From an uncultured Acidobacteriota bacterium (lineage in GTDB: Bacteria; Acidobacteriota; Vicinamibacteria; Fen-336): 64,000 nucleotides of DNA. The DNA is taken from assembly GCA_902826455.1 (NCBI GenBank), contig CADEEV010000009.1:1-64000 (forward strand), given 5' to 3'. This document shows, piece after piece, positions 26,643 through 44,191 of the stretch (positions are counted from its first letter, which is position 1; each line of letters opens with the position of its first letter). Under the pieces are notes generated by a model. The model was given only the letters and a program-made list of their open reading frames with translations, did not search any database and had not been told where the DNA came from. Position numbers and translations under genes: made by a program.

Positions 26643-27224
26643 ATGCGTTGGCCTCCAGCCGTGGCGCTGCTTCTCGCGACGGGCGGGGCGAGCGCCGCGA
26701 GCGTGAACGTCGCGGTCCTCGACGAGCGCGGCGCCCCGATCGCCCAGGCCGTCGTCTACGCGATCCCGGAAGGGCGCCGGCCCGCGCCGCCCGTGCGCGG
26801 CGCGGTGCTCGACCAGAAGAACCGCGCCTTCGTGCCCCACGTCCTCGCGGTGCAGACCGGGACGTCCGTGAAGTTCCCGAACAGCGACAACGTGCGCCAC
26901 CAGGTCTACTCGTTCTCGCCCGCCAAGCGCTTCCAGCTGCCGCTCTACGAGGGCACGCCGGCGGCCCCGGTGGTGTTCGACAAGCCCGGCGTCGTCACCC
27001 TGGGCTGCAACATCCACGACCGGATGAGCGCCTACGTCGTGGTGGTCGACACGCCCCACTTCGGCGAGACCGAGAAGGGCCGCGTGTCGCTCCAGGGCCT
27101 CGCCGAGGGCCGCTACACCCTGCGCGTCTGGTACGCTGGCCTGCGCGGCGAGGCGCCTTCCCAGGAGCTCACGCTGGGGGCCGGCGACGCCCGCGACGTG
27201 CAGTTCCGGATCGACCGGAAGTAG
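26643..27224 (+). CDS. Periplasmic cupredoxin-like protein (methylamine-utilisation-protein type)
   Basis: 193 residues with signal peptide (AVALLLATGGASAAS). A plastocyanin-like domain carries candidate type-I copper ligands: His in NVRHQVYSF and the Cys-His-Met set in LGCNIHDRMSAYV. A C-terminal beta-sandwich (GLAEGRYTLRVWYAG) resembles a carboxypeptidase-regulatory-like fold. It may bind copper or shuttle electrons in the periplasm. It sits between the porin-like gene and the GGDEF-EAL gene, 5 bp from the latter. Confidence 0.85.
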   Translation: MRWPPAVALLLATGGASAASVNVAVLDERGAPIAQAVVYAIPEGRRPAPPVRGAVLDQKNRAFVPHVLAVQTGTSVKFPNSDNVRHQVYSFSPAKRFQLPLYEGTPAAPVVFDKPGVVTLGCNIHDRMSAYVVVVDTPHFGETEKGRVSLQGLAEGRYTLRVWYAGLRGEAPSQELTLGAGDARDVQFRIDRK

Positions 27225-27229
27225 CCGCC

Positions 27230-29566: not shown

Positions 29567-29578
29567 TACGTTGCGTAC
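29566..29578. promoter_or_regulatory. Putative PadR operator, copy 1
   Basis: GTACG-TTG-CGTAC, a perfect 5-bp dyad around three bases, overlapping the last base of the GGDEF-EAL stop codon. It is repeated as copy 2 exactly 20 bp downstream, i.e. two helical turns, within the longer match AGTACGNTGCGTACCA. Confidence 0.6.
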
Positions 29579-29585
29579 CATGACA

Positions 29586-29598
29586 GTACGATGCGTAC
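29586..29598. promoter_or_regulatory. Putative PadR operator, copy 2, containing the padR start codon
   Basis: GTACG-ATG-CGTAC. The three central bases are the ATG of the PadR-family gene at 29591. A bound repressor here would cover the 5' end of its own gene, indicating autorepression. No SD sequence precedes the ATG. Confidence 0.6.
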
Positions 29599-30157
29599 CA
29601 AGAGCGCCGCGAGCCTGCCCGCCACCGCCCTCGACGCCATGCTCATGGGCCTGCTCGAGGGGGGGCCGCGCGCCGGCTACGAGCTGCGCAAGGCCCTCGT
29701 CGGCAGCCCCCTCAAGCACTTCAGCGAGAGCCCGGGAGCCGTCTATCCGGCTCTGAGGCGCCTGGAGGCCAACGGCTGGGTCGTCCCGGTCACCGACGCT
29801 CCCGGAGGCCGCGGCCGGCGCGACCTCAAGCTCACGCCCCGGGGCCGCGCCGCCTTGTTGTCGTGGCTCGGGCGGCCGGTCAGCCGCGAGGACGTGGTCT
29901 GGCGCCAGGACGAGCTGGCCTTGCGCTTCGCGTTCCTGTGCCCCGCCTTGCCGCTCTCGGAGGCGAAGCGTTTCCTGAAGGACTTCCTCCGCGAGATCCA
30001 GGGCCATCTGGTCGAGCTGAGGCGCTTCCGCAAGGAGATGGCGCCGGGCATGACGCCGACGGGGCGCCTCGCCTTCGACGGCGGCGTCGCACTCTACGAG
30101 GCGCGGGCGCGCTGGGCGCGGGGCGCGCTCACCACCCTGGGGAGACGATCACGATGA
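29591..30157 (+). CDS. PadR-family transcriptional regulator
   Basis: 188 residues. N-terminal winged helix of the PadR type: ALDAMLMGLLEGGPRAGYEL, GAVYPALRRLEANGWV and the wing GGRGRRDLKLTPRGRAAL. The C-terminal helical dimerisation domain (about 95-188) is of the Vir-like class. It is the first gene of a three-gene unit with a multi-span membrane protein (ATGA overlap) and an epimerase (ATGA overlap). Two 13-bp dyads at its 5' end suggest it represses its own operon. Ligand unknown. Confidence 0.92.
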   Translation: MRTKSAASLPATALDAMLMGLLEGGPRAGYELRKALVGSPLKHFSESPGAVYPALRRLEANGWVVPVTDAPGGRGRRDLKLTPRGRAALLSWLGRPVSREDVVWRQDELALRFAFLCPALPLSEAKRFLKDFLREIQGHLVELRRFRKEMAPGMTPTGRLAFDGGVALYEARARWARGALTTLGRRSR

Positions 30158-30951
30158 CGCGCTTCGTCCTGAAGAGCCTGGCCCTGCTCGTCCTCTCGCT
30201 GGTGATCGGCGCGGCGGCGGCTCCGCTCCTGCCGAAGGCCATCCTGGCGGCGGCCTCGCCGGCGCTCGGGCCCGTGCTCCTCTCGAGCGCCCTCACGATC
30301 GTCTTCGCGCTCTGTCTCGCGGGCCGCAGCTCCGGAGGCGTCGCGAGCCGGGCCCTGCTGCTGCTGTGGCTGATCTTCGGGCTCCAGGCCAACAACCTGG
30401 TGGAGACGCTGATCTTCGACATCGGCCTGCCGCGCCCCGAGCTGTGGCGCTTCTACCTCCACGGGTTCGTGTCCACGGCCGTGCTGGCCCTCGCGATCGC
30501 GTGGGCCGCCGGGCCTCCGTTGCCGGCGGCTTCGCGAGCGCCGCGGCCGCTCTCCGCGACCCTCGGGCGCCTGGCCGTCGTGGCCGTCGTCTACATCGGC
30601 GTGTACTTCACGGCCGGCGAGGCGATCTACCCGTACATCGCGAGCTTCTACGGCGCCTTCCGGCTGCCGGCCGTCACGACGATCGTGCCCCTGGCGCTCA
30701 CCCGCGGGCTCGTCTTCGGGCTGCTCGCCCTGGCCCTCGTCGAGCGCCTCGGGCCGGGCCAGCGGCGCGGGCCGTTGTGGGTGGCCGGCCTCTTCAGCGT
30801 GGTGGGCGGCGTCGCGCCGCTCTTGATGCCGAACCCCTTCATGCCCGACTACGTGCGCTACGCCCACATGGTCGAGGTCGGCATCTCGAACGTCTTCTTC
30901 GGCCTGTTCGCGGGCGCGCTGCTCGCGCGGGATGAGAGAATGCCCGGATGA
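30154..30951 (+). CDS. Multi-span membrane protein coupled to PadR
   Basis: 265 residues with about seven hydrophobic segments: SLALLVLSLVIGAAAAPLL, GPVLLSSALTIVFALCLAG, ALLLLWLIFGLQANNLVETL, FVSTAVLALAIAWAAG, GRLAVVAVVYIGVYF, FGLLALALVERL and GISNVFFGLFAGALLA. It overlaps padR upstream and the epimerase downstream by ATGA tetranucleotides, so it is translationally coupled to both. I recognise no named family. PadR-linked membrane proteins are often exporters or stress proteins, but no transporter motif is visible. Confidence 0.78.
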   Translation: MTRFVLKSLALLVLSLVIGAAAAPLLPKAILAAASPALGPVLLSSALTIVFALCLAGRSSGGVASRALLLLWLIFGLQANNLVETLIFDIGLPRPELWRFYLHGFVSTAVLALAIAWAAGPPLPAASRAPRPLSATLGRLAVVAVVYIGVYFTAGEAIYPYIASFYGAFRLPAVTTIVPLALTRGLVFGLLALALVERLGPGQRRGPLWVAGLFSVVGGVAPLLMPNPFMPDYVRYAHMVEVGISNVFFGLFAGALLARDERMPG

Positions 30952-31940
30952 AACTGCTCTTCATCGGAGGCACCGGCAACATCAGCTCCGCGTGCGTCGA
31001 GCTGGCCCTCGAGCGCGGTCACGACGTGACCCTCTTGACGCGCGGCCAACAGCCGCTGCCGCCGGGCGTGAAGGCGCTGTCGGGGGATCGCAACGACGCC
31101 GGGGCACTCGCCCGCGCCGCCGCCCACAACTTCGACGCCGTCCTCGACTTCGTGGCCTTCAAGCCCGAGCAGGTCGAGGCCGTGGTCTCCGCCTTCGCCT
31201 CCCGCACGGGGCAGTACGTCTTCATCAGCTCGGCGACGGTGTACCGGCGTCCGTCGCCGCGCGCCTTCACCCGCGAGGACGACCCGCTGGGGAACGACCA
31301 CTGGGAGTACGGCCGGCTGAAGATCGCCTGCGAGGAGGCGCTGATCCGCGCCCACCGCGAGCGCCAGTTCCCCGTGACGATCGTGCGGCCCTCCTACACG
31401 TTCGGACCCACCTGGGTGCCGAGCGCCGTGGCGGGCCACGACTACACCCTCGTCGACCGGATCCGGCGCGGCCTGCCCATCGTCTCCCACGGCGACGGCA
31501 CGTCGTTCTGGATGATGACGTTCCACACCGACTTCGCCCTGGGCTTCCTGGGCCTCGTGGGCAATCCCCGGGCGATCGGCGAGGCCTTCCACGTCACGAC
31601 CGACGAGGTCCTGACCTGGGACACGATCTACCGCGAGATCGGCCGCGCCGCAGGCCGCGAGCCCGAGATCGTCCACGTGCCGTCCGACCTGCTCGCGGCG
31701 CTCCTGCCCGACAAGGCCGGCACGCTGCTCGGCGACAAGGCCCACAGCTCGATCTTCGACAACGCGAAGCTGAAGGCCGCCGTTCCCGAGTTCCGCGCCT
31801 CCGTGTCGTTCCGTGAGGGCATCGCCCGCAGCATCGCGTGGTTCGACGCCGATCCGGCGCGGCGCCAGGCGAACGCGGCCACGAACCAGGCCCTGGACCG
31901 GGTCGTCGCGGCGCAGCGCGGGGCGTTCCCTACTTCGTGA
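30948..31940 (+). CDS. NAD(P)-dependent epimerase/dehydratase
   Basis: Extended short-chain dehydrogenase, 330 residues. Rossmann motif LLFIGGTGNISSACVELAL at the N-terminus, strand QYVFISSATVYRR and catalytic Tyr-Lys in EYGRLKIACEEAL. RPSYTFGPTW is the C-terminal substrate segment. It resembles sugar-nucleotide epimerases such as those in plant CSP41-like groups; substrate not assignable. It is the last gene of the padR operon. The 3' end overlaps the convergent secreted-protein gene by 11 bp. Confidence 0.9.
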   Translation: MKLLFIGGTGNISSACVELALERGHDVTLLTRGQQPLPPGVKALSGDRNDAGALARAAAHNFDAVLDFVAFKPEQVEAVVSAFASRTGQYVFISSATVYRRPSPRAFTREDDPLGNDHWEYGRLKIACEEALIRAHRERQFPVTIVRPSYTFGPTWVPSAVAGHDYTLVDRIRRGLPIVSHGDGTSFWMMTFHTDFALGFLGLVGNPRAIGEAFHVTTDEVLTWDTIYREIGRAAGREPEIVHVPSDLLAALLPDKAGTLLGDKAHSSIFDNAKLKAAVPEFRASVSFREGIARSIAWFDADPARRQANAATNQALDRVVAAQRGAFPTS

Positions 31941-32823
31941 GGCCGCACGCCGCCGACCACGGCGCGAGCATCGCGTCGATGCCGGCGAGGTCGAAGCTGT
32001 CGACCGTGGGTTCGCCTTGCGAGCCCGGGAAGGCGACGTTGAGGCGGCCGTGGCCGAGCAGGCTCTTCAGCTGCTCGCGGGGCTTCGCCAGGTAGATCGC
32101 CTTGCCGTCGCTTCCCGGCCTCGATGCGACCTTGAGCGTCGGCCCCTCGTCGAGCTGCAGGCCCACGGGCTGGCCCTGGGACGATAGGCCACCGCTGTCC
32201 ACCGCCAGGTAGAGGTCGGCGTCGTCGCCGCGGCAGCGCAGGCGGAGCGACACGACGCCGTTGTCGCCCTTGAGCGAGAGCACGACGCCCTCGGCCCCCT
32301 TCGCATCCACGAGGCCGCGGGCCGTCCACTTGCCGGCGGGCGCCACGGGTCCCAGGGCCGGCGCGGCCGCGGGCGGGAAGCGACAGTGACGCCGCAGCTC
32401 GTCGAGCGCGGGCGCGAGGCGGCGCAGGTCGTAGTGCTCGGGACTCCCCGCCGCCACGAGGGTGAGGGTGCGGGCCGATCCGAGGGTCGAAAGAAGGCGC
32501 GCGGCAGGCAGGCGCGCGCTCACGTTCGTGTCCCACTCCGCGTAGTAGAGGACGGCCTCGCCCCCGTCCGTCGCGATCGAGAGCGGGCCGCCCTTGCCGG
32601 GCGTGCCGCTGAAGTAGAACGCCTCGAGGAGCGGCTCGCGGTCGCTGCAGCGCAGGCTCAGCGTGCCGGTCCGCAGGAACGACTTCGCGTCGGGAATGGG
32701 CGTGCCGGTCACGGCATGCAGCGTCTTCTTGTCGCGGGTGCGCGTCGCGTAGGCCCAGCCCACGCTCTCGGGGACGCCGGCAGGGGCCGCGAGGACCGCG
32801 GCGAGGGCGAGGGACGACAGCAT
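31930..32823 (-). CDS. Hypothetical secreted protein
   Basis: 297 residues from ATG 32823. The signal peptide (MLSSLALAAVLAAPAG) favours this start over a TTG at 32862, which coincides with a -35-like TTGACA. The body has two similar beta-rich halves (GTLSLRCSDREPLLEAFYF and GVVSLRLRCRGDDADLYLAV) that look like a repeated domain, each with a Cys in the strand. No family recognised with confidence. Possible -35 TTGACA and -10 TACCGT precede the gene. Confidence 0.75.
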   Translation of the reverse strand: MLSSLALAAVLAAPAGVPESVGWAYATRTRDKKTLHAVTGTPIPDAKSFLRTGTLSLRCSDREPLLEAFYFSGTPGKGGPLSIATDGGEAVLYYAEWDTNVSARLPAARLLSTLGSARTLTLVAAGSPEHYDLRRLAPALDELRRHCRFPPAAAPALGPVAPAGKWTARGLVDAKGAEGVVLSLKGDNGVVSLRLRCRGDDADLYLAVDSGGLSSQGQPVGLQLDEGPTLKVASRPGSDGKAIYLAKPREQLKSLLGHGRLNVAFPGSQGEPTVDSFDLAGIDAMLAPWSAACGLTK

Positions 32824-32832
32824 CGGAGGACC

Positions 32833-32862
32833 ACGGTAGGAGCCCCGCGCCCGCCTTGTCAA
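32833..32862 (-). promoter_or_regulatory. Promoter TTGACA-N18-TACCGT
   Basis: On the minus strand a perfect -35 (32857-32862), an 18-bp spacer and a -10-like TACCGT (32833-32838) that ends 9 nt before the ATG of the secreted-protein gene. No SD sequence follows. Confidence 0.45.
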
Positions 32863-32886
32863 GATCGGCCCTCGCCCCGGACGTCG

Positions 32887-33198
32887 CTACGGCTTCTGCT
32901 GGTCGTCGTGCTTCTGACGGTAGATGCTCCGGCTCGCGCGGTTCTCGTCGCGGCGCAGGTCGGCGCGCTCGCGCGGTCCCAGGTGGCCGTCGTCGTGACG
33001 GTAGCGGTACTCCTCGGCACGGATGTGCGCCTGCTGCCCGATCAGGCGCGCGGCCTCGCGCCGGGTCAGCTCGCCCGACTGGACGCCGTTGCGGATGCGG
33101 ACGGACTGCCGGTGCTCGCGGCGGTTCACGGGGCCGGCCTCGGCCGTACCGACGGCCAGGAGGCCCAGGACGGCCAGGCTCGAGAGTGCGGTCTTCAT
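32887..33198 (-). CDS. Small secreted charged protein
   Basis: 103 residues from ATG 33198 with GGAGGAG upstream. Signal peptide (LSSLAVLGLLAVGTAEAG) followed by a highly basic helical region (NRREHRQSVRIRNGVQSGEL, LRRDENRASRSIYRQKHDD) including TRREAARLIGQQAHIRAEEY. It resembles small periplasmic EF-hand-less stress proteins of acidobacteria, but no family is certain. It lies 95 bp downstream of the response regulator, same strand. Confidence 0.8.
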   Translation of the reverse strand: MKTALSSLAVLGLLAVGTAEAGPVNRREHRQSVRIRNGVQSGELTRREAARLIGQQAHIRAEEYRYRHDDGHLGPRERADLRRDENRASRSIYRQKHDDQQKP

Positions 33199-33293
33199 CG
33201 TGCTCTCCTCCTCCGGGCCTCCTTGCGGGCGGCCCGAATCGTGGTGTTCGTCGGGATTGGACCGCGAGGTCGGGAAGAAGGTTGGCCCGGCGG

Positions 33294-33701
33294 CTACGTG
33301 GCGGGGGGGCCGCCGGCCGGCCGGCGGCCGACGCTCGTGAACAGGCCCACGACCGAGCGCAAGGCGGCCCGGGCCACGGGCTTCACGAGATACGAGTCGG
33401 CGCCGGCGCCGCGCCCGGCCGTGTAGTCCTTCATGTCCTTGTTGGCGGTGACGAAGATGATCGGGACGCGGCAGCCCTGCTCGCGGAGCAGTCGGCAGGC
33501 CTCGTAGCCGTCCATCTCGGGCATGTTCACGTCGAGCAGGATCAGGTCGAAGGGACCGTCGGCCTCGTAGCGCTGGAGGCACTCGAGGCCGTTCGCGCCT
33601 TCGACGATCTCGAACTGTTCGGTGCGGTCGCCCTCGAGCATCGCGCGCACCAGCTGGCGTGTGGCCGCGTGGTCGTCGACGACGAGGATCCGCTTGGCCA
33701 T
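33294..33701 (-). CDS. Single-domain response regulator (CheY-like)
   Basis: 135 residues comprising one receiver domain: acidic pair in LVVDDHAATRQ, phospho-Asp in LILLDVNMPEMDGYEA, Thr in FVTANKD and Lys in YLVKPVARAAL. A short Gly/Pro tail follows and no output domain is present, so it must act by binding a partner or in a phosphorelay. No kinase adjoins it; the hybrid kinases of this window are possible but unproven partners. Divergent from the DUF255 gene across 43 bp. Confidence 0.92.
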   Translation of the reverse strand: MAKRILVVDDHAATRQLVRAMLEGDRTEQFEIVEGANGLECLQRYEADGPFDLILLDVNMPEMDGYEACRLLREQGCRVPIIFVTANKDMKDYTAGRGAGADSYLVKPVARAALRSVVGLFTSVGRRPAGGPPAT

Positions 33702-33730
33702 GAACCCGAGAGGTTAGCATGCAAAACGGA

Positions 33731-33736
33731 TAGACT
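33731..33736 (+). promoter_or_regulatory. -10 hexamer TAGACT, leaderless-type
   Basis: TAGACT ends 8 nt before the GTG of the DUF255 gene at 33745; no SD sequence intervenes. Confidence 0.4.
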
Positions 33737-33744
33737 CTCCGGCC

Positions 33745-35889
33745 GTGTCGAAGCCCGAGTCCTCGAAGCCCAACCGGCTGGCCGCGGAGTCGAGCCCCTA
33801 CCTGCTCCTTCACGCCCACAACCCCGTGGACTGGTACGCGTGGGGCGACGAGGCCTTCGAGCGCGCCCGGGCCGAGGACAAGCCGATCTTCCTGTCGGTC
33901 GGCTACTCGACGTGCTACTGGTGCCACGTCATGGAGCGCGAGAGCTTCTCCGATCCCGACATCGCGAAGCAGCTCAACGACGCGTTCGTGGCGATCAAGC
34001 TCGACCGCGAGGAACGCCCGGACCTCGACGAGATCTACATGGCGGCGACCCAGCTGCTGACCGAGTCGGGAGGCTGGCCCAACTCGGTGTTCCTGACCCC
34101 CGAGGGCAAGCCGTTCTTCGCCGGAACCTATTTTCCGCCCGACGATCGCCACGGCCGGCCGGGCTTCCCGCGCGTGCTGACGGCGATCCGCGAGGCCTGG
34201 GCGCTGCGGCGCGCCGAGGTCACGCAGCAGGCGGAGACGTTGTCCGAGGCGATCCGGCGCCAGGCCGAGGGTGGGGGAGCGCCCGGCGTGCCGGATCCCG
34301 GCGCGGGCGACGCCCTCGAGGCCGAGCTCGCGCGCCGCTTCGACCGCCGCCACGGCGGCTTCGGCCGCGCGCCCAAGTTCCCGTCGCCCGCGAACCTCTA
34401 CTTCCTCCTCGACCGGGCCCGGGCGGGCGGCGCCGAGGCCCGCGACATGCTGGTCGTGACCCTCGACCGCATGGCGCGCGGCGGCATCCACGACCAGATC
34501 GCCGGCGGCTTCCACCGCTACTCGACCGACGCCGAGTGGCTGGTGCCGCACTTCGAGAAGATGCTGTACGACAACGCGGCTCTCGCCGAGCTCTTCGTCG
34601 AGGCGGACGCCCTCGCTCCGGCCGAGGGCTTCGCCCGCGTCGGCCGCGCCACGCTGGACTTCGTGCTGCGCGAGATGACCGGGCCCGGGGGCGGCTTCCT
34701 CTCCGCGATCGACGCCGAGACCGACGGCCACGAGGGCGCCTACTACACGTGGACCGCCGCCGACCTCGACGCGGCCCTCGACGCGCCCACGCGCGCGCGC
34801 CTCGCGACGCTGTACGGCTTCGACGGGAGCCCGACCTTCGAGCGCGACCGCTACGTGCTCCACCTGCCGGAGGCTGTGGACGACGCGCTGCTCGCCGCCG
34901 CCGAGCCGGGCCGGGCCCGGCTCCTCGCCGTCCGCGACCAGCGCCCGCGGCCCCTCACCGACGACAAGGTCCTCACGGACTGGAACGGCATGATGATCGC
35001 CGCCATGGCCGTGGCCGGGCGCGCCCTCAACGAGCCGCGCTACGTGGCGGCCGCGGAGCGCGCCGCGCAGTTCGCCCTCGCCTCGCTCGTCGATCCCGCG
35101 AGCGGAGAGCTGCGCCACGTGTGGCGCCTGGGCACAGTGAAGGTCGCCGCACTGCTCGACGACTACGCGTTCCTGATCGCCGGGCTGCTGCGGCTCCACG
35201 AGGCCAGCGGCGCCGAGCGCTGGCGCGACGAGGCGCGGCGCCTCCAGGCCGAGCAGGACCGGCGCCTCTGGGACGAGGCCGCCGGCGGCTACTGGAACGC
35301 CGGCGACGACCCGCGCCTGCTGGTGCGCTCGAAGTCGGCTCACGACGGCGCCGTCTCGTCGGCCACGGGCATCGCCGCCCTGAACCTGATCGCCCTGGGG
35401 GATCGGGCGCGGGCCGAGAGACTCCTGCGCTCGCTCGCCGAGCCGATCGCGCGCTGGCCGCAGGCCCACGCGACGCTCGTGCGCGCGGTCGCGGCCTTCG
35501 GGCCGATCGTCGACGCCGCCATCGCCGCGGAGCCCGCGGCCCCGGTCCTCGCGGCCACGGCGCGGGACATCGTGACCGTGACGGCCAGCGTCGATCGCAG
35601 CGTCGCCGGCGCCTGGAAGCCGTTCGTCCTCGAGCTGACGGTGGCCGAGGGCTGGCACCTGAACGCCAACCCGCCCCTGTTGCGGTTCCTGGTCGCGACG
35701 GAGGTGCGTTCGGGCCGGAGCGAGGTACGATCGGTGCGTTACCCGAAGGACGAGCGTTACGAAGGCCGCATCCGCATCGAAGGCGAGGTCCATGTCGAGG
35801 GCGCCTCGCCTTCCGTGTCGCTGACGTACCAGCCCTGCGACGAGGAGAAGTGCCTCACCCCCGTGACGCGCGACATCGCCTTCCCGTGA
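33745..35889 (+). CDS. DUF255 thioredoxin-domain protein (YyaL/SPATA20) fused to a DsbD-alpha-like domain
   Basis: 714 residues, GTG start. N-terminal thioredoxin-like domain with [20 protein letters not shown] and CxxC in STCYWCHVM (Cys57, Cys60), then an (alpha/alpha)6-like glycosidase-type barrel (about 170-590; [30 protein letters not shown]). The C-terminal 110 residues resemble the N-terminal domain of DsbD (GWHLNANPP, and [13 protein letters not shown] with two Cys). Family function unclear, probably redox-related. It heads a unit with a PIG-L-like gene (GTGA overlap). Confidence 0.9.
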
Positions 35890-36818
35890 CCCCGGACCTC
35901 TCGAAGCTCAAGCGCTATCAGTCGGTCTTCGTGTCGACCCACGAAGGCGACGCGGTGCTCTCGTGCGCGGCGCGTCTCATCGCCGCGGGCGCCCGCGGCG
36001 GCAAGACCCTGATCGTGACGCTGTTCCGGGTCGGCGACGAGCAGCCCTTCTCGGAGCCGGGCTCCCTGTCGATCGGCCTGCCCGCCGCGTCGCTGCGCGA
36101 TCCCGCGTCCTACGACTCCTTCCGTTCCCTCGTCTTCGGGCCCGCCGGGCGCGACGAGGCCAGCCTCGAGCAGGCGGCCCGCGTGATCGACGAGGTCTTC
36201 CGCCGCACCCAGGCCCGCGACCTGTACCTGCCCCTGGGGGTCGGCGGTCACGTGGATCGCCAGCTCGCCCACGAGGCCGGCTTGCGCGCCGTGCCGCCGA
36301 AGCCGGGCCGCAACGTCTTCTTCTACGAGGAGCGTCCGGAGGCTCTCGTCCCCGGGGCGGTGCGGCTGCGTCTCGCCGAGCTCGGCGCGCGCCTGCCGCC
36401 CGTGGCCGTCGACGTGGCGCGCGAGGGCAGCCTCCCGCGCTTCCTCTACCGCTTCAACACGGTGCCGCAGCGCCGCGTCGCGCCCCGCGGCCTCGCCGAG
36501 CGCCTCGCGTGCAGCCGCCTCGCCGCGCGCGCCTGGCTGGAGGCGCGCGCCTGGCAACCGCAGCGCGCCTTCGGGCCGCGTCTCCAGCCGGTCCTGCAGC
36601 GCGTCGAGGGCGACTCGCTCGCCGCGATCCGGGAGATGGCCCACGCCGAGGGCGAGCGGCGCCGGGCGCCCGCCGCGTCGGCGCACCGCCTGCTGCGCCT
36701 CGCGTCGCGCTACGCCGACGGCCTCGGAGGCAGCGAGCACCTCGAGCGCTATTGGCTGTTGCTCCCGACCCGCGAGGACGAGGGCCGCTCGGAGCTACCC
36801 GCGACGCTGTCCGCGTAG
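35886..36818 (+). CDS. PIG-L/LmbE-like deacetylase family protein
   Basis: 310 residues, GTG start overlapping the DUF255 stop. The N-terminus matches the LmbE fold: [20 protein letters not shown] corresponds to the PHPDDE loop with the first Pro/Asp positions changed, and [15 protein letters not shown] provides the second zinc-binding H-x-D pattern. Such enzymes remove N-acetyl groups from sugars or thiol glycosides. The altered loop (HEGD) may change or remove activity. The C-terminal third is unassigned. Confidence 0.75.
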
Positions 36819-36826
36819 TTTCGCGG

Positions 36827-36832
36827 TAGGCT
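36827..36832 (+). promoter_or_regulatory. -10-like hexamer TAGGCT, leaderless-type
   Basis: TAGGCT ends 7 nt before the ATG of the GNAT gene at 36840 with no SD sequence between, suggesting an internal promoter in the 33745-39209 gene run. Confidence 0.35.
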
Positions 36833-36839
36833 CGGGCCC

Positions 36840-37691
36840 ATGGCCCAGAACGCCTCCGGTCTCTTCGCCGACGTCGAACTCGCGGCGCGCATCGAGCGTG
36901 CCGAGCGCACGCTGATCGAGGAGGGCGCTCTCGCCGCCGCGCGCCGCGACGCCCACGAGCGCGTGCTCGTGCTGCCGGTGGGCGGCGGCCTCGCGGTGTG
37001 GGCCGGAACGGGCTCGCCGCTCAACAAGGTCGTCGGCCTCGGCTTCGGCGGCCGCGTCGAGGATCGCGAGCTCGACGCCGTGGAGGCCGAGCTCGCCGAG
37101 CGCGACACGCCGGTGCAGTTCGAGATCTCGACCCTCGCGGATCCCGCCCTCGTCGAGCGTCTGACGCGCCGCGGCTACGTGCTCCGCGGCTTCGAGAACG
37201 TCCTGGGCCTGCGCCTCGCCGCCGGTCGCGAGGCGCCCCTCGCGAAAGGCGTCGCGATCCACGACGTCGGGCCCAGGGAGTTCGAGGCCTGGCTCGACGT
37301 GGTCGTGGACGGCTTCGCGACCCCCGACACGCAAGGTGTCGCGTCCCACGAGGAGTTCACCCGCTCCGCCGTCGAGCGCGCCATGCGCGATCTGACGTCG
37401 GCCAGCGGCTTCGTGTGCTCCCTCGCGAGCCTCGACGGCGCCCCTGCGGGCGGCGCCAGCCTGCGGCGCAGCGAGGGGCTGGCGCAGCTCTGCGGCGCCG
37501 CGACGCTGCCGGGATTCCGCCGCCGCGGCGTGCAGGCCTCGCTCCTGTCGGCGCGCCTCGCCTCGGCCGCCGGCGCCGGCTGCGACCTCGCCGTGGTCAC
37601 GACCCAGCCGGGCTCCAAGTCGCAGGAGAACGTCCAGCGACTCGGCTTCGAGCTGCTCTACGCGCGGGCGGTCCTCGTCCGGCCCGCCTGA
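36840..37691 (+). CDS. GNAT-family N-acetyltransferase
   Basis: 283 residues. The C-terminal half (about 135-283) is a GNAT fold with motif A in GAATLPGFRRRGVQASLLSA, the acetyl-CoA pyrophosphate loop, and NVQRLGFELLYARAV at the end. The N-terminal half looks like a degenerate second GNAT lobe (PLNKVVGLGFGG, RRGYVLRGFENVLGL). Substrate unknown. It lies 21 bp after the PIG-L-like gene and 3 bp before a solute-binding lipoprotein gene. Confidence 0.88.
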   Translation: MAQNASGLFADVELAARIERAERTLIEEGALAAARRDAHERVLVLPVGGGLAVWAGTGSPLNKVVGLGFGGRVEDRELDAVEAELAERDTPVQFEISTLADPALVERLTRRGYVLRGFENVLGLRLAAGREAPLAKGVAIHDVGPREFEAWLDVVVDGFATPDTQGVASHEEFTRSAVERAMRDLTSASGFVCSLASLDGAPAGGASLRRSEGLAQLCGAATLPGFRRRGVQASLLSARLASAAGAGCDLAVVTTQPGSKSQENVQRLGFELLYARAVLVRPA

Positions 37692-37694
37692 GCC

Positions 37695-39209
37695 ATGAGA
37701 GGCGCCGCCTGGGCACTCGTCGGGACGCTCGGAGCGCTCGGCTGCTCGGGCGCGAGACCCGCGGCGCCTCCGGCCGGCACCCTCCGCATCGCGGTGCAGG
37801 GCGACATCACCGGCCTCTATCCGAAGCTGCGCAACGAGTCCTACAGCTTCGCCGTCAATGCCAACGTCTTCGAGGGCCTGACCCGCCTCGGCCACGACCT
37901 GGGTCCGGAGCCGGCACTGGCCGACGCCTGGGCGAACCCCGACGAGCACACCTGGGTCTTCCACCTGCGCCCGGGCGTGCGCTTCTCCGACGGGCGGCCC
38001 GTCGGCATGCCGGACGTGGTCGCGTCGCTGCGTCACGCCATGAGCGCGAACACCACGCGGACTCTCCTCGCCCCCATCGAATCGATCGAGCCCGTCGGCC
38101 CGGACTCGCTGAAGATCAGGACGCGCTTCCCCTGTCCCGTGCTGCTCGCCCACCTGGCGTTCGCGTTCGTCGTGCCCGAAGCGGCCCTTGCCGCCGTCGA
38201 CGGCACCCGCGCCCTGGGCACGGGACCGTTCGAGGTCGTGGCCTGGACGCCCGGCCGGGAGCTCGTCCTGGCCCGAAACCCGCAGTATCGCGGGGCGCGT
38301 CCCGACTTCGACGAGGCGCGCTTCGTCGTGACGCCGGATCCGGTGCAGCGCCTTCGCGCGCTGCAGGCGGGCAGCGTCGACATCGCGGACAACGTGCCCA
38401 CCCGCGAGATCGCGGCCCTGCGCGAGAGCCCGTCGTTGCGGGTCGTGAGCCGGCCCGGCCTGCGCGTCCTGTTCCTCGCGCTGCGCGTCGATCGGGCGCC
38501 GTTCACCGATCCCCGCGTGCGCGAGGCACTGGATCTCGCGATCGACCGCGGCGCGCTCGTGACGCGGGCGATGAACGGCTTCGGCGTGCCCTCGGCGCAG
38601 CTCGTGCCGCCGCCGGTCCTGGGCTTCAACCCGGACATCCCGCTGACCGCCGCGAACCCGGCCCGGGCCCGGGAGCTGCTGCGCGCGGCGGGCCATCCGG
38701 AGGGCCTTGCCTTGCGTCTCGACGGACCGACCGACCGCTATCCGTCGGGGATCGAGATCATGCGCGAGGTCGCACGCCAGCTGGGGGAGGTCGGGATCCG
38801 GATCGAGATCCAGGGCCGGCCCAAGGACGCGTTCTTCACCCACGTCGACGGCGGCCAGTACCAGCTCCTGCTCTACGGCTGGTCGTGCGAGACGATCCAG
38901 GCCGGCGAGGCCCTCGACGAGCTGATTCGCACGCCGCCGCCCGGGGAAGGCCCGAACATCGAGGGTTTCTCGGACTCGCGCATCGACCTGCTGATCGACA
39001 CGGCCAATCGGGCCTCGCAGATCCGGGAGCGCTCGACGCTCCTGGGCGAGGCCCTCGCGGCCGTGGCCGCGGCGCGCCCGATCATCCCCCTCGCGATCCA
39101 GAACGAGTCGTTCGCGTTCTCGTCCGAGCGCGTCGCGTGGAATCCCTCCCTGGACATGGCGCTGTTCGTCGCCGACGTGCGCCGACCCGCTCCGTCCGGC
39201 GTCCGCTAG
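37695..39209 (+). CDS. Family-5 solute-binding lipoprotein (peptide/nickel ABC type)
   Basis: 504 residues with lipobox (LGALGCSGARP, Cys17). It follows the oligopeptide/nickel-binding fold: GTLRIAVQGDITGLYP, NVFEGLTRLG, WVFHLRPGVRFSDGRPV, ALGTGPFEVVAWTPGRELVL, VREALDLAIDRGALV, and the RASQIRERSTLLGEALAAV end region. It captures peptides or similar ligands outside the inner membrane. No permease or ATPase gene lies nearby, so its transporter is elsewhere or it works alone. Ends 3 bp from a convergent cupin gene. Confidence 0.9.
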   Translation: MRGAAWALVGTLGALGCSGARPAAPPAGTLRIAVQGDITGLYPKLRNESYSFAVNANVFEGLTRLGHDLGPEPALADAWANPDEHTWVFHLRPGVRFSDGRPVGMPDVVASLRHAMSANTTRTLLAPIESIEPVGPDSLKIRTRFPCPVLLAHLAFAFVVPEAALAAVDGTRALGTGPFEVVAWTPGRELVLARNPQYRGARPDFDEARFVVTPDPVQRLRALQAGSVDIADNVPTREIAALRESPSLRVVSRPGLRVLFLALRVDRAPFTDPRVREALDLAIDRGALVTRAMNGFGVPSAQLVPPPVLGFNPDIPLTAANPARARELLRAAGHPEGLALRLDGPTDRYPSGIEIMREVARQLGEVGIRIEIQGRPKDAFFTHVDGGQYQLLLYGWSCETIQAGEALDELIRTPPPGEGPNIEGFSDSRIDLLIDTANRASQIRERSTLLGEALAAVAAARPIIPLAIQNESFAFSSERVAWNPSLDMALFVADVRRPAPSGVR

Positions 39210-39212
39210 CCG

Positions 39213-39542
39213 CTACTCCGTCTCGGCGGGGGCGAAGAAGACGAGCGCCGTCAGGTCCTCCCGGACGCTGTGGAAGCGGTGCGTCGCCCCGGCGGCCACG
39301 AAGAGCACGGCGCCGGTCTCGGCAGGCAGGTCCTGGCCGTCGACCGTGAGCACGGCCGCGCCGCTCGCGACGTAGTAGACCTCGTCCTGGTGGTGCGGCG
39401 ACTGCGGGTCGGCCGCGCCCTGCTTCAGGTGGTAGATGCCCATGCTCAGGCTGGGAACGCGCAGGAACTCGAGCCACGCGCGGCCGGACTGCTCCCGATC
39501 GGCCTTCAGTCGCTCGAGGCTGAAGGCTCGTGCCGTGCTCAT
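39213..39542 (-). CDS. Cupin-domain protein
   Basis: 109 residues from ATG 39542, chosen because GGAGG lies 7 nt upstream; frames further up lack such a signal. Cupin motif 1 in SPHHQDEVYYVASGAAVLTV supplies His/His/Glu, and motif 2 in TGAVLFVAAGATHRFHS supplies His, a likely single metal site. Small beta-barrel of unknown ligand; such proteins act as dioxygenases, isomerases or binding proteins. It stands alone on the minus strand. Confidence 0.85.
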   Translation of the reverse strand: MSTARAFSLERLKADREQSGRAWLEFLRVPSLSMGIYHLKQGAADPQSPHHQDEVYYVASGAAVLTVDGQDLPAETGAVLFVAAGATHRFHSVREDLTALVFFAPAETE

Positions 39543-39585
39543 GGGGTCACCTCCGGGCCGATACATTACCTCGACGCTCACGGGT

Positions 39586-39591
39586 TAGGCT
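39586..39591 (+). promoter_or_regulatory. -10-like hexamer TAGGCT, leaderless-type
   Basis: TAGGCT ends 6 nt before the ATG of the zinc-finger gene at 39598, with no SD motif. The same hexamer-spacing pair occurs before the GNAT gene (36827-36832). Confidence 0.4.
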
Positions 39592-39597
39592 TGGGCC

Positions 39598-40128
39598 ATG
39601 GCACACCTGATCCAGCCGGCCACCACCGCGCGGTCGAAGTGCCGGGGCTGCGGCGAACGCATCGCCGCCGGCGCGCTGCGCTTCGGCGAGGTCGTCCCCA
39701 ACCCGTTCGCCGAAGGCGATGCGACCCAGTGGTTCCACGTCGCGTGCGGCGCCCACAAGCGGCCCGAGCCGTTCCTCGAGGCCCTGTCCGGCGCCAGCGA
39801 GCCCGTTCCCGACGCCGAGTCCCTGAGCGCGGTGGCCCAGGGCGGCGTCGCCCACCCGCGCCTCGCGCGCATCGACGGCGCCGAGCACGATCCCTCGGGC
39901 CGCGCGACCTGCCGTCACTGCAAGACCAGGATCGAGAAGGGCGCCTGGCGCATCCGCCTCGTGTACTACGAGGACGGACGCTTCCAGCCGTCCGGCGCCG
40001 TCCACGTGCCGTGCGCGCGCGCCTACTTCGAGGCCGACGACGTGCTGCCCCGCGTCAGGCACTTCGCGCCTGCCCTGGCCGAAGCCGACCTGAAGGAGAT
40101 CGAGACGCTCCTCGCCCCGGCTACTTGA
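39598..40128 (+). CDS. Protein with two PARP-type zinc fingers
   Basis: 176 residues containing two copies of a C-x2-C ... H-x2-C zinc module. Finger 1 has SKCRGCGERIAAGALRFGE and TQWFHVACGAHK (about 12-58). Finger 2 has ATCRHCKTRIEKGAWRIRL and AVHVPCARAYF (about 98-145). The spacing and the basic/aromatic residues after the first Cys pair match the zinc fingers of eukaryotic poly(ADP-ribose) polymerases, which bind DNA ends. No catalytic PARP domain is present. Likely a nucleic-acid-binding protein (inference). Confidence 0.75.
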   Translation: MAHLIQPATTARSKCRGCGERIAAGALRFGEVVPNPFAEGDATQWFHVACGAHKRPEPFLEALSGASEPVPDAESLSAVAQGGVAHPRLARIDGAEHDPSGRATCRHCKTRIEKGAWRIRLVYYEDGRFQPSGAVHVPCARAYFEADDVLPRVRHFAPALAEADLKEIETLLAPAT

Positions 40129-40618
40129 TCCAGTCCTCGTAGCCCGCGAGCCCCTTCCAGCGCTCGGGGTCCTGCAGGACGAGGGTGTTGAAGTAGACGT
40201 CGATCTGGTCGTGGGGGAAGGCCGGCGCGATCGCGAGGGCCGCCTTCTTGAGGGCGCCTGCTTCGGGCACGGGGAAGGCGTCGGCCTCTTCCTTCAGCAG
40301 GCCGTTCTCGTGGGGCAGCCCGAGGGCGTCGAGGAACGCGACCAGCAGGGGCCGCCGCGAGCCCAGGTGCAGCGAGATCAGGAGCGACGAGACCAGGGGC
40401 TCGCCGGGGTCGAGCACCGTCGAGAGCGCCTCGGCCAGGGCGTCGGGCGCCATCGCCCGGGCCACCTGGGGCCGGAGCTTGCGCACGCGGATCACGGCCG
40501 ACAGGGCGTGGGCGTACAGCTCGGGCGGGGGCTCTTCCAGGAAGGTCGCCGCCGCGACGCGCTTGTCCTCGCGCGACACCTTCTTCCAGATGCGTCCGGC
40601 GCTCGTCTCGAAGTCCAT
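40121..40618 (-). CDS. Hypothetical alpha-helical protein
   Basis: 165 residues from ATG 40618, predominantly helical (DKRVAAATFLEEPPPELYAH, LRPQVARAMAPDALAEALST, SSLLISLHLGSRRPLLVAFL) with no signal peptide or span. It may form HEAT-like helices. I do not recognise a family. The -10 TATACT (40627-40632) lies 8 nt upstream with no SD sequence. It overlaps the zinc-finger gene by 8 bp tail to tail. Confidence 0.75.
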   Translation of the reverse strand: MDFETSAGRIWKKVSREDKRVAAATFLEEPPPELYAHALSAVIRVRKLRPQVARAMAPDALAEALSTVLDPGEPLVSSLLISLHLGSRRPLLVAFLDALGLPHENGLLKEEADAFPVPEAGALKKAALAIAPAFPHDQIDVYFNTLVLQDPERWKGLAGYEDWIK

Positions 40619-40626
40619 GGCGCGGG

Positions 40627-40632
40627 AGTATA
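40627..40632 (-). promoter_or_regulatory. -10 hexamer TATACT, leaderless-type
   Basis: TATACT on the minus strand ends 8 nt before the ATG at 40618; no SD sequence between. The same hexamer precedes the response regulator at 1377. Confidence 0.4.
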
Positions 40633-40673
40633 CCGTTGACAGGGCCGGCTCCCGTCGCGACCATAGGCGCGCT

Positions 40674-40937
40674 ATGGCTTCACTCGACAGCCGCGGCTGC
40701 CTCACGGACGAGGGTCTCGACAGCGTGGCCCGCGCGCCGGTGGGCCAGGCGCCGGCCGAGCTCGCGGCGCACCTGGCGTCCTGTGCGCGATGCCAGGAGA
40801 GGATGTTGTTCCGCGGCACGCCGCGCGGCCCGAGGAAGACGGCGCCGCCCCGCTGGCGCGTGTGGGTCGTCGTCGGGGCCGCGATCCTGCTGCTGCTGTC
40901 GGTGCTCGTGACGCTGCGCCGGGTGGCGGGCGTCTAG
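40674..40937 (+). CDS. Mini membrane protein with anti-sigma-like zinc motif
   Basis: 87 residues. The N-terminal half has AELAAHLASCARCQERM, the H-x3-C-x2-C motif of zinc-binding anti-sigma (ZAS) domains, followed by a linker and one membrane span (VWVVVGAAILLLLSVLVTL). It looks like a stripped-down anti-sigma factor, but no sigma gene is adjacent. ATG at 40674; no clear SD sequence. Its TAG stop lies in a CTAG shared with the convergent SDR gene. Confidence 0.72.
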   Translation: MASLDSRGCLTDEGLDSVARAPVGQAPAELAAHLASCARCQERMLFRGTPRGPRKTAPPRWRVWVVVGAAILLLLSVLVTLRRVAGV

Positions 40938-41629
40938 ACGGGGATCACGGCGCCCGTCGTCGCCGCCGACGCCGGCGACAACAGGAACGCGATCACCCGG
41001 GCGACGTCCTCCGGCGACGTCCAGCGCGAGCGGTCGGCCTTCGGCATCGCGTGGCGGTTCGCCTCGGTGTCGATCGTGGTGGGCGAGACGGCGTTGAAGC
41101 GCACGCCACGATCCCGGTTCTCGAGGCTCAAGGCGCGCGTCAGGGCCAGCACCGCGCTCTTGGAGGCGGCGTAGGCCGCCATCCCGCCGCCGGCGGTCTC
41201 CGCGGTGCGCGAACCCACGGTCACGACGCTGCCGCCTTCCTTCAGGAGCCAGGGCAGCGCCGCGCGGCAGGTGGAGTACACGGACTCCAGGTTGATCCGC
41301 AGCATGTCGTCCCACTCCGACGCGGGCGAGACCTCCAGGTTGCCCGAGGCGGCGAAGCCGCCCGCGATGCAGGCGACACCGTCGAGGCCTCCCAGCCAGC
41401 TCGCGGCGGCGTCGACGAAACGCCGCATCGCGTCGAGGTCGGAGACGTCGGCCGGCTGGCCCCACAGCGACACGGCCTGGGCCCCGGCGGCGGCCTGCAG
41501 GGCCTCCCAGCCCGCGGCGCCCCGGTACGGCACGGCGACCCGGTCGCCTCGCGCGAGCAGCTGCAGGACGAGCGCGCGGCCGAGGGCGCCGGTGCCGCCC
41601 GTGACGAGGATGCCGGCCGCGCTGTGCAT
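40934..41629 (-). CDS. Short-chain dehydrogenase/reductase
   Basis: 231-residue classical SDR: cofactor loop VTGGTGALGRAL, strand ACIAGGFAASGN in place of NNAG, catalytic Ser in VVTVGSRTAE, Tyr-x3-Lys in AAYAASKSAVLAL, and the PTTIDTEANR segment after the active site. It reduces or oxidises an unknown alcohol/carbonyl with NAD(P)H. The -10 TATAAA (41636-41641) ends 6 nt before the ATG, without an SD sequence. Confidence 0.9.
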   Translation of the reverse strand: MHSAAGILVTGGTGALGRALVLQLLARGDRVAVPYRGAAGWEALQAAAGAQAVSLWGQPADVSDLDAMRRFVDAAASWLGGLDGVACIAGGFAASGNLEVSPASEWDDMLRINLESVYSTCRAALPWLLKEGGSVVTVGSRTAETAGGGMAAYAASKSAVLALTRALSLENRDRGVRFNAVSPTTIDTEANRHAMPKADRSRWTSPEDVARVIAFLLSPASAATTGAVIPV

Positions 41630-41635
41630 GGCCCG

Positions 41636-41641
41636 TTTATA
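41636..41641 (-). promoter_or_regulatory. -10 hexamer TATAAA, leaderless-type
   Basis: TATAAA on the minus strand, followed by CGGGCC and the ATG of the SDR gene at 41629: a 6-nt gap with no SD sequence. One of the clearest examples of the pattern. Confidence 0.5.
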
Positions 41642-41704
41642 CCACCGCGGGCCGTGGCGGCCGGTTGTGGGCTATCATGACCGTCCCTCCAGCCCCGAAG
41701 AACT

Positions 41705-44191
41705 GTGATCTGTCCTTCCTGCGAAATCGACAACGAAGCCGGCCTCGAGACCTGCTTCGGCTGCGGCAAGAGCCTCTCCGCCGTGACCCAGGGCGCGCTG
41801 ATCTCGGGACGCTACGAGATCCTCGACCTGCTCGGCAAGGGCGGCATGGGCATGGTGTATCGCGCCCACGACCAGCTCCTCGACGAGATCGTGGCCATCA
41901 AGGTCCTGCGCAGCGAGTTCGTCGGCACGCCCGAGGTGGCCCAGCGCTTCCGCTCGGAGATCAAGCTCGCGCGGAAGGTGTCGCATCCCAACGTCTGCCG
42001 GATCCACGAGTACGGCCAGGACGGGACGCTCACCTACATCTCGATGGCGCTCATCGAGGGCACGGACCTGAGCCGCCTGGTGCGCGCCCACCCGGAAGGC
42101 CTGCCCCTGGACACCGCGTTCGCCCTCGCGATCCAGGTGACGGACGGCCTGCAGGCGATCCACGACGTCGGGATCATCCACCGCGACCTCAAGAGCTCCA
42201 ACGTGATCTGCGACGCGGCCGGGGTCGCCCGCCTGATGGACTTCGGCATCGCGAAGGACTCGGCCGGCAAGGGCCAGCTCACCGCGACGGGCCAGGTCAT
42301 GGGCACCCCCGAGTACATGAGCCCCGAGCAGTGCCACGGCGACGCCCTCGACTTCCGCAGCGACGTGTACTCCCTGGGCATCGTGCTCTTCGAGATCTTC
42401 ACGGGCCGCGTGCCGTTCCGCGGCGAGACCCTGATGGCGACGCTCCTGAAGCAGGTGCAGGACGAGCTGCCCCTGGACGCCGCCCTCACGGCGCGCCTTC
42501 CGGCCGGCGTCGTCGCGACCCTGCGCAAGGCGCTCGCGAAGGACCCGGGCCAGCGCTACGGGACCGCCGCCGAGGTGGCCGAGGCGCTGCGCGACGCACG
42601 CAGGACCCCGGCCCCCGTCGACGCCGCGACGCCCGCCGATCCGCCGCCGGCTCCCGCGACCGAGCGGCGTCGCGACACGCGCCTGCCGATCAGCCTCGAC
42701 ATCCTCCTGCAACGCTCGTCGGCGGGCGGCGCCATCCTGCAGGAGGAGCGCACGATCGCCGACAACGTCGGACGCCACGGGGTCCGTGTGCTCACCACGA
42801 TGACCTCGATCAACAAGGGCGACACCGTCAACGTCCGGCAGGTGGACGGCGACTTCCAGAGCCGCTCGGCCGTGCGTCACGTCCACGCGGGCACCGACTC
42901 CTTCCGCAAGCTGGGTCTCGAGTTCCTCGATCGCGTCGCGCCGGATCACCTCGTGCCCAGCGACGGCGCCCAGCCGCGCGCCCCCCTCAACGTGCCGAAG
43001 CCCGCCCCGGCCCCGCCGCCGGCTCCGGCCCCGCGCTCCGAGGAGCGCCGCAAGGACTCTCGGCTCGCGATCAGCGTCGACGTCAAGCTGCGGCGCCTGT
43101 CGCCGAGCGGCGTCGTGCTCGAGGAGGAGCGCACGGTCGCGGACAACGTGGGCCGCCACGGCGCCCGGGTGATGTCCGCCATGCGCGACGTCGGCATCGG
43201 CGAGGTCCTCTCCGTGCACGAGGTCGGCACCGACTTCCAGACCCGCGCCGAGGTGCGCGCCGTCTATGTCGGCTCCGACCGGATCCAGCGCCTCGGCCTG
43301 CAGTTCCTCGACCACGCGACGCCCGTGAGGCTTCTTCCCGACGGCGATTCCAAGCCGAAGCTCACGCCGCCGGCCGGCGCCGCGCGGCCGCCCCAGCCCC
43401 CGAGCCCGGCTCCGCCGCCTCGCGAGCGCGAACCGTCCGAGCGGCGCCGCCAGATCCTCGCCGCCTTCGAGGCGCTCGGGACGCGCACGCACTTCGAGGT
43501 GCTCGGGATTCCGCGGGCGTCGAACGCGACCCAGGTCAAGGACGCCTACTTCCGCCTCGCCCGGCAGTACCACGCGGACGTGCAGCTCGAGGCAGACGTC
43601 GCGGACCTCAAGCCCCAGGTCGAGGCGATCTACCTGCGCGTGGGCGTCGCCTACGAGACCCTGATCAAGCCCGACAGCCGCTCGCGCTACGAGGGCCTGC
43701 TGGGTCCGAGCCGTCCGAAGTGGACGCCGTCCGCGGTGCCGGCGGTGAGCCACGAGCCGCGGTCGCCGCCCGCGCGCGAGCCCGAACCGGAGCCGGCGCC
43801 GAAGGCGCCCCTCGACGCCGAGAGCGCCGCGCGCCTCGCGCTCCAGATCGCGGCGCAGGGCCGGGATCTCCTCGCCGAGGGAAAGTTCTGGGACGCGATC
43901 CAGACCCTCGAGGGCGGCCTGGAGCTGGCCCCCGGCACGCGCTCGAACCAGGCGCTGCGCGTCGTGCTCGCCCAGGCCACCGCCAAGAACCCGCGCTGGC
44001 GGAAGCGCGCCGAGGAGATGCTCGTCGAGCTCACGCGCGAGAGAGGCGCGCCGCCCGAGGCGTTCCTCGCCTTGAGCGCGCTCTACGAGGAGGAAGGCTT
44101 CCGGGCTCGCGCCGCGGCGCAGCTGCGCCGCGTGCTCGAGATCCAGCCGGGACACGCGGACGCCCTGGCGCGCTTGCGCGCGCTCGACTAG
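41705..44191 (+). CDS. Zinc ribbon-Ser/Thr kinase-PilZ-PilZ-J-domain-TPR fusion protein
   Basis: 828 residues, GTG start. Order: zinc ribbon (Cys3, 6, 17, 20), Ser/Thr kinase (about 36-300; LLGKGGMGMVY, HRDLKSSN, MDFGIAK, PEYMSPEQ), Pro-rich linker, PilZ-like domain 1 (about 322-425; RRRDTR, DNVGRHG), linker, PilZ-like domain 2 (about 448-550; RRKDSR, DNVGRHG), J-like domain (about 585-655; THFEVLGIPRASNATQVKDA) whose HPD is HAD, then TPR. The PilZ DxSxxG serine is Gly, so c-di-GMP binding is uncertain. Presumed cytosolic signalling hub; CTAG stop shared with rhodanese. Confidence 0.9.
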   Translation: MICPSCEIDNEAGLETCFGCGKSLSAVTQGALISGRYEILDLLGKGGMGMVYRAHDQLLDEIVAIKVLRSEFVGTPEVAQRFRSEIKLARKVSHPNVCRIHEYGQDGTLTYISMALIEGTDLSRLVRAHPEGLPLDTAFALAIQVTDGLQAIHDVGIIHRDLKSSNVICDAAGVARLMDFGIAKDSAGKGQLTATGQVMGTPEYMSPEQCHGDALDFRSDVYSLGIVLFEIFTGRVPFRGETLMATLLKQVQDELPLDAALTARLPAGVVATLRKALAKDPGQRYGTAAEVAEALRDARRTPAPVDAATPADPPPAPATERRRDTRLPISLDILLQRSSAGGAILQEERTIADNVGRHGVRVLTTMTSINKGDTVNVRQVDGDFQSRSAVRHVHAGTDSFRKLGLEFLDRVAPDHLVPSDGAQPRAPLNVPKPAPAPPPAPAPRSEERRKDSRLAISVDVKLRRLSPSGVVLEEERTVADNVGRHGARVMSAMRDVGIGEVLSVHEVGTDFQTRAEVRAVYVGSDRIQRLGLQFLDHATPVRLLPDGDSKPKLTPPAGAARPPQPPSPAPPPREREPSERRRQILAAFEALGTRTHFEVLGIPRASNATQVKDAYFRLARQYHADVQLEADVADLKPQVEAIYLRVGVAYETLIKPDSRSRYEGLLGPSRPKWTPSAVPAVSHEPRSPPAREPEPEPAPKAPLDAESAARLALQIAAQGRDLLAEGKFWDAIQTLEGGLELAPGTRSNQALRVVLAQATAKNPRWRKRAEEMLVELTRERGAPPEAFLALSALYEEEGFRARAAAQLRRVLEIQPGHADALARLRALD

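What the first reader, a model, noticed from the sequence alone, without database searches (positions are those of the whole stretch)
39598..40128. Stand-alone bacterial protein with two PARP-type zinc fingers
Two C-x2-C...H-x2-C modules with PARP-like spacing occur without a catalytic domain. In eukaryotes these fingers recognise DNA breaks. A bacterial DNA-nick-binding protein of this kind would be of interest for repair or phage defence.
Basis: partly seen in the sequence, partly recalled or inferred. Interest (0 to 1): 0.5.

Follow-up and report, generated by a model that had tools for sequence, protein, structure and literature searches.

The report
Bacterial break-sensing fingers linked to Ku/LigD
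This bacterial gene makes a small protein consisting of little more than the two zinc fingers that human PARP1 uses to detect broken DNA, and its relatives occur almost only in bacteria that also carry the Ku and LigD end-joining repair genes, so it may be an unrecognised helper of bacterial break repair.

Summary
The ORF at 39598-40128 (176 aa, Acidobacteriota) is a tandem of two PARP-type zinc fingers (Pfam zf-PARP, E 1.5e-19) with no catalytic domain. A confident AlphaFold model (pLDDT 94) puts finger 1 on PARP1 Zn1 (Z 9.6) and finger 2 on Zn2 (Z 8.8). It belongs to a free-standing family ("A") seen in nine phyla by record title. None of six genomes with only the sister family "B" has Ku. 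In six genomes A lies within 11 kb of a Ku-LigD-DUF72 cluster, all in one clade of the A tree. Two of three Ku-less genomes carry a decayed A gene. PARP catalytic domain: 1 of 51 genomes. Best reading: a stand-alone break-binding accessory of Ku/LigD repair; DNA binding and partnership are inferred. Phage defence has no support here.

The parts
39598..40128 (+). gene for the stand-alone two-finger protein (176 aa, stop included), family A
39619..39840 (+). zf-PARP finger 1 as placed by Pfam (residues 8-81)
   Evidence: (46.3 bits, over cut-off); fold: PARP1 Zn1, Z 9.6, 2.4 A over 76 residues
39640..39747 (+). zinc-ligand motif 1: C15-x2-C18-x28-H47-x2-C50
   Evidence: sequence; ligands kept in 57 to 58 of 58
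39763..39870 (+). helical linker between the fingers (residues 56-91)
   Evidence: DSSP on the model, pLDDT mostly 93-97
39871..40029 (+). finger 2 (residues 92-144), weaker zf-PARP match
   Evidence: 26.4 bits alone, below cut-off; fold: PARP1 Zn2, Z 8.8, 3.1 A over 83 residues
39910..40014 (+). zinc-ligand motif 2: C105-x2-C108-x27-H136-x2-C139
   Evidence: sequence; ligands kept in 57 to 58 of 58
40045..40113 (+). C-terminal helical tail (residues 150-172)
   Evidence: nearly invariant F156 (56 of 58)

Best explanation
It is a stand-alone DNA-break-binding protein: the two tandem fingers grip the two sides of a nick, gap or end as PARP1 F1F2 does, but in trans, without signalling by poly(ADP-ribose). 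It works as an optional accessory of the Ku/LigD end-joining pathway, for example by holding or presenting nicked or gapped intermediates for LigD fill-in and sealing. Shown here: sequence, predicted fold, conserved ligands and arginines, co-occurrence with Ku/LigD, gene clustering in one clade. Inferred: zinc binding, DNA binding, preference for breaks, cooperation with Ku or LigD.
For: Fold of both fingers and of the tandem matches DNA-bound PARP1. Residues aligned with PARP1 Arg18/Arg122, which insert in the minor groove (PMC4678113, passages seen), are kept: R12 in 58 of 58, R102 R in 42 and Q in 16; R118 in 58 of 58, R28 in 57 of 58, aromatic at 37 in 58 of 58. Ku in 14 of 14 sampled Acidobacteriota genomes with A, 0 of 6 with B only, 127 of 396 overall. 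Ku in 55 of 58 genomes of the genome-contig hits; LigD Prim-Pol in 46 of 50 examined. Background 61 of 299 in Pseudomonadota, against 19 of 20 hits with Pseudomonadota titles. Ku, LigD and DUF72 within 11 kb of A in L034, L039, L040, L050, L091, L092. Two of three Ku-less genomes have a decayed A gene: in-frame stop in L072, zinc cysteines of both fingers lost in L084, against one (L088, frameshift) of 52 scorable Ku genomes. The window's genome has Ku and a ligase-polymerase LigD together on contig C30.
Against: Most A genes are not linked to Ku/LigD; the window's own is on another contig. All six linked loci fall in one 16-row clade of the A tree, so linkage may be few events. NHEJ itself correlates with genome size (PMC7719229): against 167 DUF72-positive genomes of 3.3-6.5 Mb without A, 99 with Ku, the Acidobacteriota result falls to Fisher p 0.001, and genomes were treated as independent. 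Most Ku genomes lack A (113 of 127), so it is not required. PARP1 base-stacking residues F44 and V48 align with A38 and A42 and are not conserved as letters. The decay comparison was made after seeing the data and rests on draft assemblies.
Confidence: 0.58

Rival explanations
1. It is a nick and gap binder for ordinary single-strand-break or base-excision repair, independent of Ku; the link with Ku reflects LigD's own role in gap repair or a shared niche.
For: Tandem PARP1 fingers bind single-strand breaks (PMC4678113). A B. subtilis LigD has 5'-dRP lyase activity tied to base excision (PMC4770248, abstract start seen). Three A genomes lack detected Ku and two of them keep at least part of LigD.
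Against: Ku itself is in 60 of 63 and the A gene looks decayed in two of three genomes without it. B, with the same fingers, does not track Ku.
Confidence: 0.2
2. Co-occurrence is ecological: soil-type, large-genome bacteria carry both NHEJ and this protein, which does something else, for example transcriptional or nucleoid regulation through the fingers.
Against: B-only genomes of similar size have Ku in 0 of 6; physical clustering; 19 of 20 in Pseudomonadota against 61 of 299.
Confidence: 0.17
3. Part of a bacterial poly(ADP-ribose) pathway with a PARP enzyme acting in trans.
For: Fingers are PARP-type.
Against: PARP catalytic domain PF00644 in 1 of 51 genomes (G000 plus 50 hit genomes), not in the window's genome.
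Confidence: 0.02
4. Anti-phage defence protein sensing nicked phage DNA.
Against: No PADLOC match, no relatives in the viral, phage or plasmid scans, no defence gene recognised among recurrent neighbours.
Confidence: 0.03

Closest known systems
PARP1 Zn1-Zn2 (F1F2) DNA-break recognition module
   Same: Two tandem zf-PARP fingers, same ligand pattern, predicted fold (Z 9.6 and 8.8), minor-groove arginine of finger 1 conserved
   Different: Free-standing and bacterial, no Zn3, BRCT, WGR or catalytic domain; finger 2 divergent; fingers joined by a helical linker that the model holds confidently (pTM 0.87); base-stacking residues differ
DNA ligase III zinc finger (nick sensor of a ligase)
   Same: Same finger family (E 3.2e-8 to 1uw0); would likewise serve a ligase
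   Different: One finger fused to the ligase there; two fingers on a separate protein here
Bacterial Ku/LigD end joining
   Same: Same genomes, and in one clade the same gene cluster
   Different: The passages that I searched in two papers on bacterial NHEJ (PMC7719229, PMC8656161) hold neither 'zinc' nor 'PARP'; the described core is Ku and LigD
Bacterial PARPs (WGR plus PARP domain, e.g. Herpetosiphon)
   Same: PARP-related domain in bacteria
   Different: Those are described mostly as WGR plus catalytic domain (PMC4245714, passages); this one has fingers only

Membership tests
zf-PARP (PF00645) | profile score over the curated cut-off | tested here: met
   70.9 against 39.3 bits for the whole protein; finger 2 alone 26.4, below
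zf-PARP (PF00645) | C-x2-C-x(27-30)-H-x2-C zinc ligands | tested here: met
   both fingers
zf-PARP (PF00645) | PARP-finger fold | tested here: met
   predicted model only: Z 9.6 to Zn1, 8.8 to Zn2
zf-PARP (PF00645) | binds zinc and DNA breaks | not testable with these tools
   needs protein
PARP1-like enzyme | PARP catalytic domain in the protein | tested here: not met
   no match in 176 aa; none in the window's genome
PARP1 F1F2 base-stacking pair | hydrophobic residues at PARP1 F44 and V48 | tested here: not met
   A38 and A42 in the window; family A/G and M/T/A there; a neighbouring aromatic at 37 is invariant
bacterial NHEJ component | co-occurs with Ku and LigD | tested here: met
   Ku 60 of 63; LigD Prim-Pol 46 of 50 examined
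bacterial NHEJ component | gene clustered with ku/ligD | tested here: inconclusive
   six genomes in one clade; not in the window's genome
bacterial NHEJ component | needed for or stimulates end joining | not testable with these tools
   needs genetics or biochemistry
anti-phage defence system | match to a known defence model | tested here: not met
   0 families, PADLOC

The most novel reading that the evidence does not exclude
A dedicated third component of bacterial end joining: a free-standing PARP1-F1F2-like clamp that recognises the nicked or gapped intermediate left after Ku-mediated synapsis and hands it to LigD, so that bacteria use in trans, and without poly(ADP-ribose), the break-sensing module that eukaryotes fuse to PARP1 and ligase III.
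Probability: 0.35. Interest if true: 0.78.

Novelty: new variant of a known kind. Interest (0 to 1): 0.6.

Why it matters
Bacterial NHEJ is described as a two-protein system. A conserved, cross-phylum protein that tracks Ku and carries the eukaryotic strand-break-sensing fold would add a testable third factor, and would show the PARP finger working without PARylation. It also offers a small protein for studying how PARP fingers choose nicks over ends.

Tried and rejected
Tried: PARP-pathway reading (PF00644 in 1 of 51), rejected. Phage/mobile reading: viral-contig scans with the window protein and with both family alignments, phages and plasmids by tblastn, PADLOC: nothing. PHROGs gave only weak partial matches to finger 2, best E 2.1e-4, unknown function. 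NCBIfam: nothing over cut-off. Neighbours of family B: 7 of the 8 B genes were laid out (G327 was not), and by eye no shared partner was seen; no statistics were run on them. DUF72 as a specific partner: rejected as a discriminator, it is in 271 of 396 Acidobacteriota and in all A and all B-only genomes. In the fold comparison only PARP1 and ligase III fingers stood clear of the tail of rows.

Rows dropped: from the tree and column counts L072, L085, L087, L088, L089 were left out: internal stop, contig edge, masked bases, frameshift, and a one-finger ankyrin protein. Of the 63 genomes with an A-type hit, L089 is not a true A protein; without it 59 of 62 have Ku. LigD and PARP were asked of 50 of the 58 hit genomes. 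For the decay comparison L085, L087 and L089 were not scored.

Full report
What is there. The ORF at 39598-40128 + encodes 176 aa. Pfam zf-PARP matches with E 1.5e-19 over two stretches; finger 1 is C-x2-C-x28-H-x2-C and finger 2 C-x2-C-x27-H-x2-C. Sequence search of the PDB finds PARP1 fingers and the ligase III finger. AlphaFold2 on an alignment of 13 family members gives pLDDT 94.0 and pTM 0.87. Foldseek ranks PARP1 F1F2 bound to DNA first (2n8a, 9mi8). VIA-align gives Z 9.6 (2.4 A, 76 residues) for finger 1 against Zn1 3oda_B and Z 8.8 (3.1 A, 83 residues) for finger 2 against Zn2 3ode_B, while rows other than PARP1 and ligase III fingers fall to 4.7 and below. These rest on a prediction, not a solved structure.

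A family. In 396 sampled genomes of the phylum, 20 have zf-PARP. The phylum is Acidobacteriota: sampled genome G059 has the same Ku coordinates as the genome of L052, titled Acidobacteria bacterium Mor1, and the window's nearest relative in the tree is a Vicinamibacteria record. The 20 fall into two free-standing two-finger families: A (the window's; 14 genomes) and B (about 205 aa; 8 genomes, two of which also have A). B also gives a confident two-finger model (pLDDT 89.6), not compared with the PDB. A scan of genome contigs with the A alignment gave 58 loci in records titled Acidobacteriota, Pseudomonadota, Planctomycetota, Myxococcota, Gemmatimonadota, Rhodothermota, Bacteroidota, Eisenbacteria and Krumholzibacteriota, nearly all metagenome-assembled. 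The pattern scan makes 58 a lower bound. Phyla are intermixed in the A tree, including a 16-row clade with 100/99 support that holds Pseudomonadota, Acidobacteriota, Planctomycetota and Eisenbacteria, which suggests horizontal transfer; mis-binned contigs are possible.

Conserved surface. In 58 aligned A proteins, R12 and R118 are invariant and R28 is in 57; R102 is R in 42 and Q in 16; residue 37 is always F or Y. By the alignment R12 lies on PARP1 Arg18 and, for the second finger of PARP1, on Arg122, which insert into the minor groove (PMC4678113, passages read); R102 sits at the same spacing before finger 2. PARP1 Phe44 and Val48 fall on A38 and A42, so the stacking pair is not kept as such, though an aromatic next to it is.

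Link with NHEJ. An all-against-all comparison of neighbours in the 58 loci put LigD and DUF72 (4 loci each, tied with one permease family) at the top of recurrent neighbours. tblastn then showed Ku, LigD and DUF72 together near A in L034, L039, L040 and L050, and in two further Acidobacteriota genomes, G119 (L091) and G019 (L092); Pfam confirmed LigD, Ku and DUF72 for L034/L039. In L034 the order is Ku, LigD, DUF72, A, with A 15 bases after DUF72. In L091 LigD is only 36% identical to that of L034 and its orientation differs. L061 has DUF72 next to A and no Ku or LigD in its 20 kb. All six linked loci lie in the 16-row clade, so I claim clustering for that clade only.

Co-occurrence. Among the 396 genomes Ku is in 127: 14 of 14 with A and 0 of 6 with B only. 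Within family f35, A genomes G059, G319 and G343 have Ku, and B-only genomes G033, G263 and G327 do not. The 58 hit genomes have Ku in 48 of 50 and 7 of 8. Nine genomes occur in both sets by identical Ku coordinates, so the union is 60 of 63. LigD Prim-Pol is in 46 of 50 examined. Pseudomonadota background is 61 of 299 against 19 of 20 hits with Pseudomonadota titles. Fisher p: 7e-8 for Acidobacteriota, 2.6e-5 for A against B-only, 9e-12 for Pseudomonadota, but 0.001 against size- and DUF72-matched Acidobacteriota (99 of 167 with Ku). Genomes are treated as independent, which overstates these. NHEJ is known to follow genome size (PMC7719229, passages).

Exceptions. The three Ku-less genomes hold L044, L072 and L084. 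L084 has lost C15 and C108 (and R28); L072 has an in-frame stop inside finger 2; L044 is intact and has LigD. Among 52 scorable Ku genomes one A gene (L088) is broken by a frameshift. By hand, two or more of three against one of 52 has a chance of 157/26235, about 0.006. The comparison is post hoc, and assembly errors or missed Ku genes are possible.

No PAR pathway. PARP catalytic domain is in 1 of 51 genomes, not in the window's. The window's genome has Ku (C30:34521-35060) with a 643-aa ligase-polymerase LigD about 2 kb away and DUF72 at C30:43482, on a contig other than the window's C9.

Prior art. Ten paper searches were allowed and used. Those combining PARP-type fingers with bacteria or bacterial NHEJ returned no paper that, from its listing, is about a bacterial stand-alone zf-PARP protein. 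Searching inside four papers for zinc, PARP and DUF72: no such word in three (PMC7719229, PMC9226535, PMC8656161); in PMC11936186 'zinc' only concerning a eukaryotic PBZ motif. The library holds open-licence papers only, so this does not show absence from print. PMC4245714 (passages) describes bacterial PARPs as mostly WGR plus catalytic domain.

Verdict. The fingers are real; the break-binding role is likely by family; the NHEJ link is new to me and well supported statistically but not mechanistically.

Noticed in passing
G000:C30:34521-44117 (not in window; L090 covers 27000-42000), also G066 C105, G333 C119, G092 C4, G137 C130, G278 C65, G376 C60: DUF72 (PF01904) genes lie within about 10 kb of Ku in many Acidobacteriota, with or without the finger protein, so DUF72 itself may belong with NHEJ (positions).
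   Followed up: partly
L089:9431-10903 (Labilithrix): A single zf-PARP finger followed by ankyrin repeats in one frame; another bacterial use of the finger.
   Followed up: no
G077, G003, G033, G263, G327, G335, G319, G343 (L094-L100 cover seven of them): Sister family B: two-finger proteins of about 205 aa; six of the eight genomes lack Ku. Its partner is unknown.
   Followed up: partly
window 41705-44191 +: 828-aa protein kinase with a DnaJ domain and weak PilZ and TPR matches, an unusual combination.
   Followed up: no
L058, L069, L070: A gene of 108-111 aa of unknown function lies one or two genes from the finger gene, which is in one related Acidobacteriota group.
   Followed up: no
window 40124-40618 -: Convergent neighbour of 165 aa without any Pfam match; its stop overlaps the stop region of the finger gene.
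   Followed up: no
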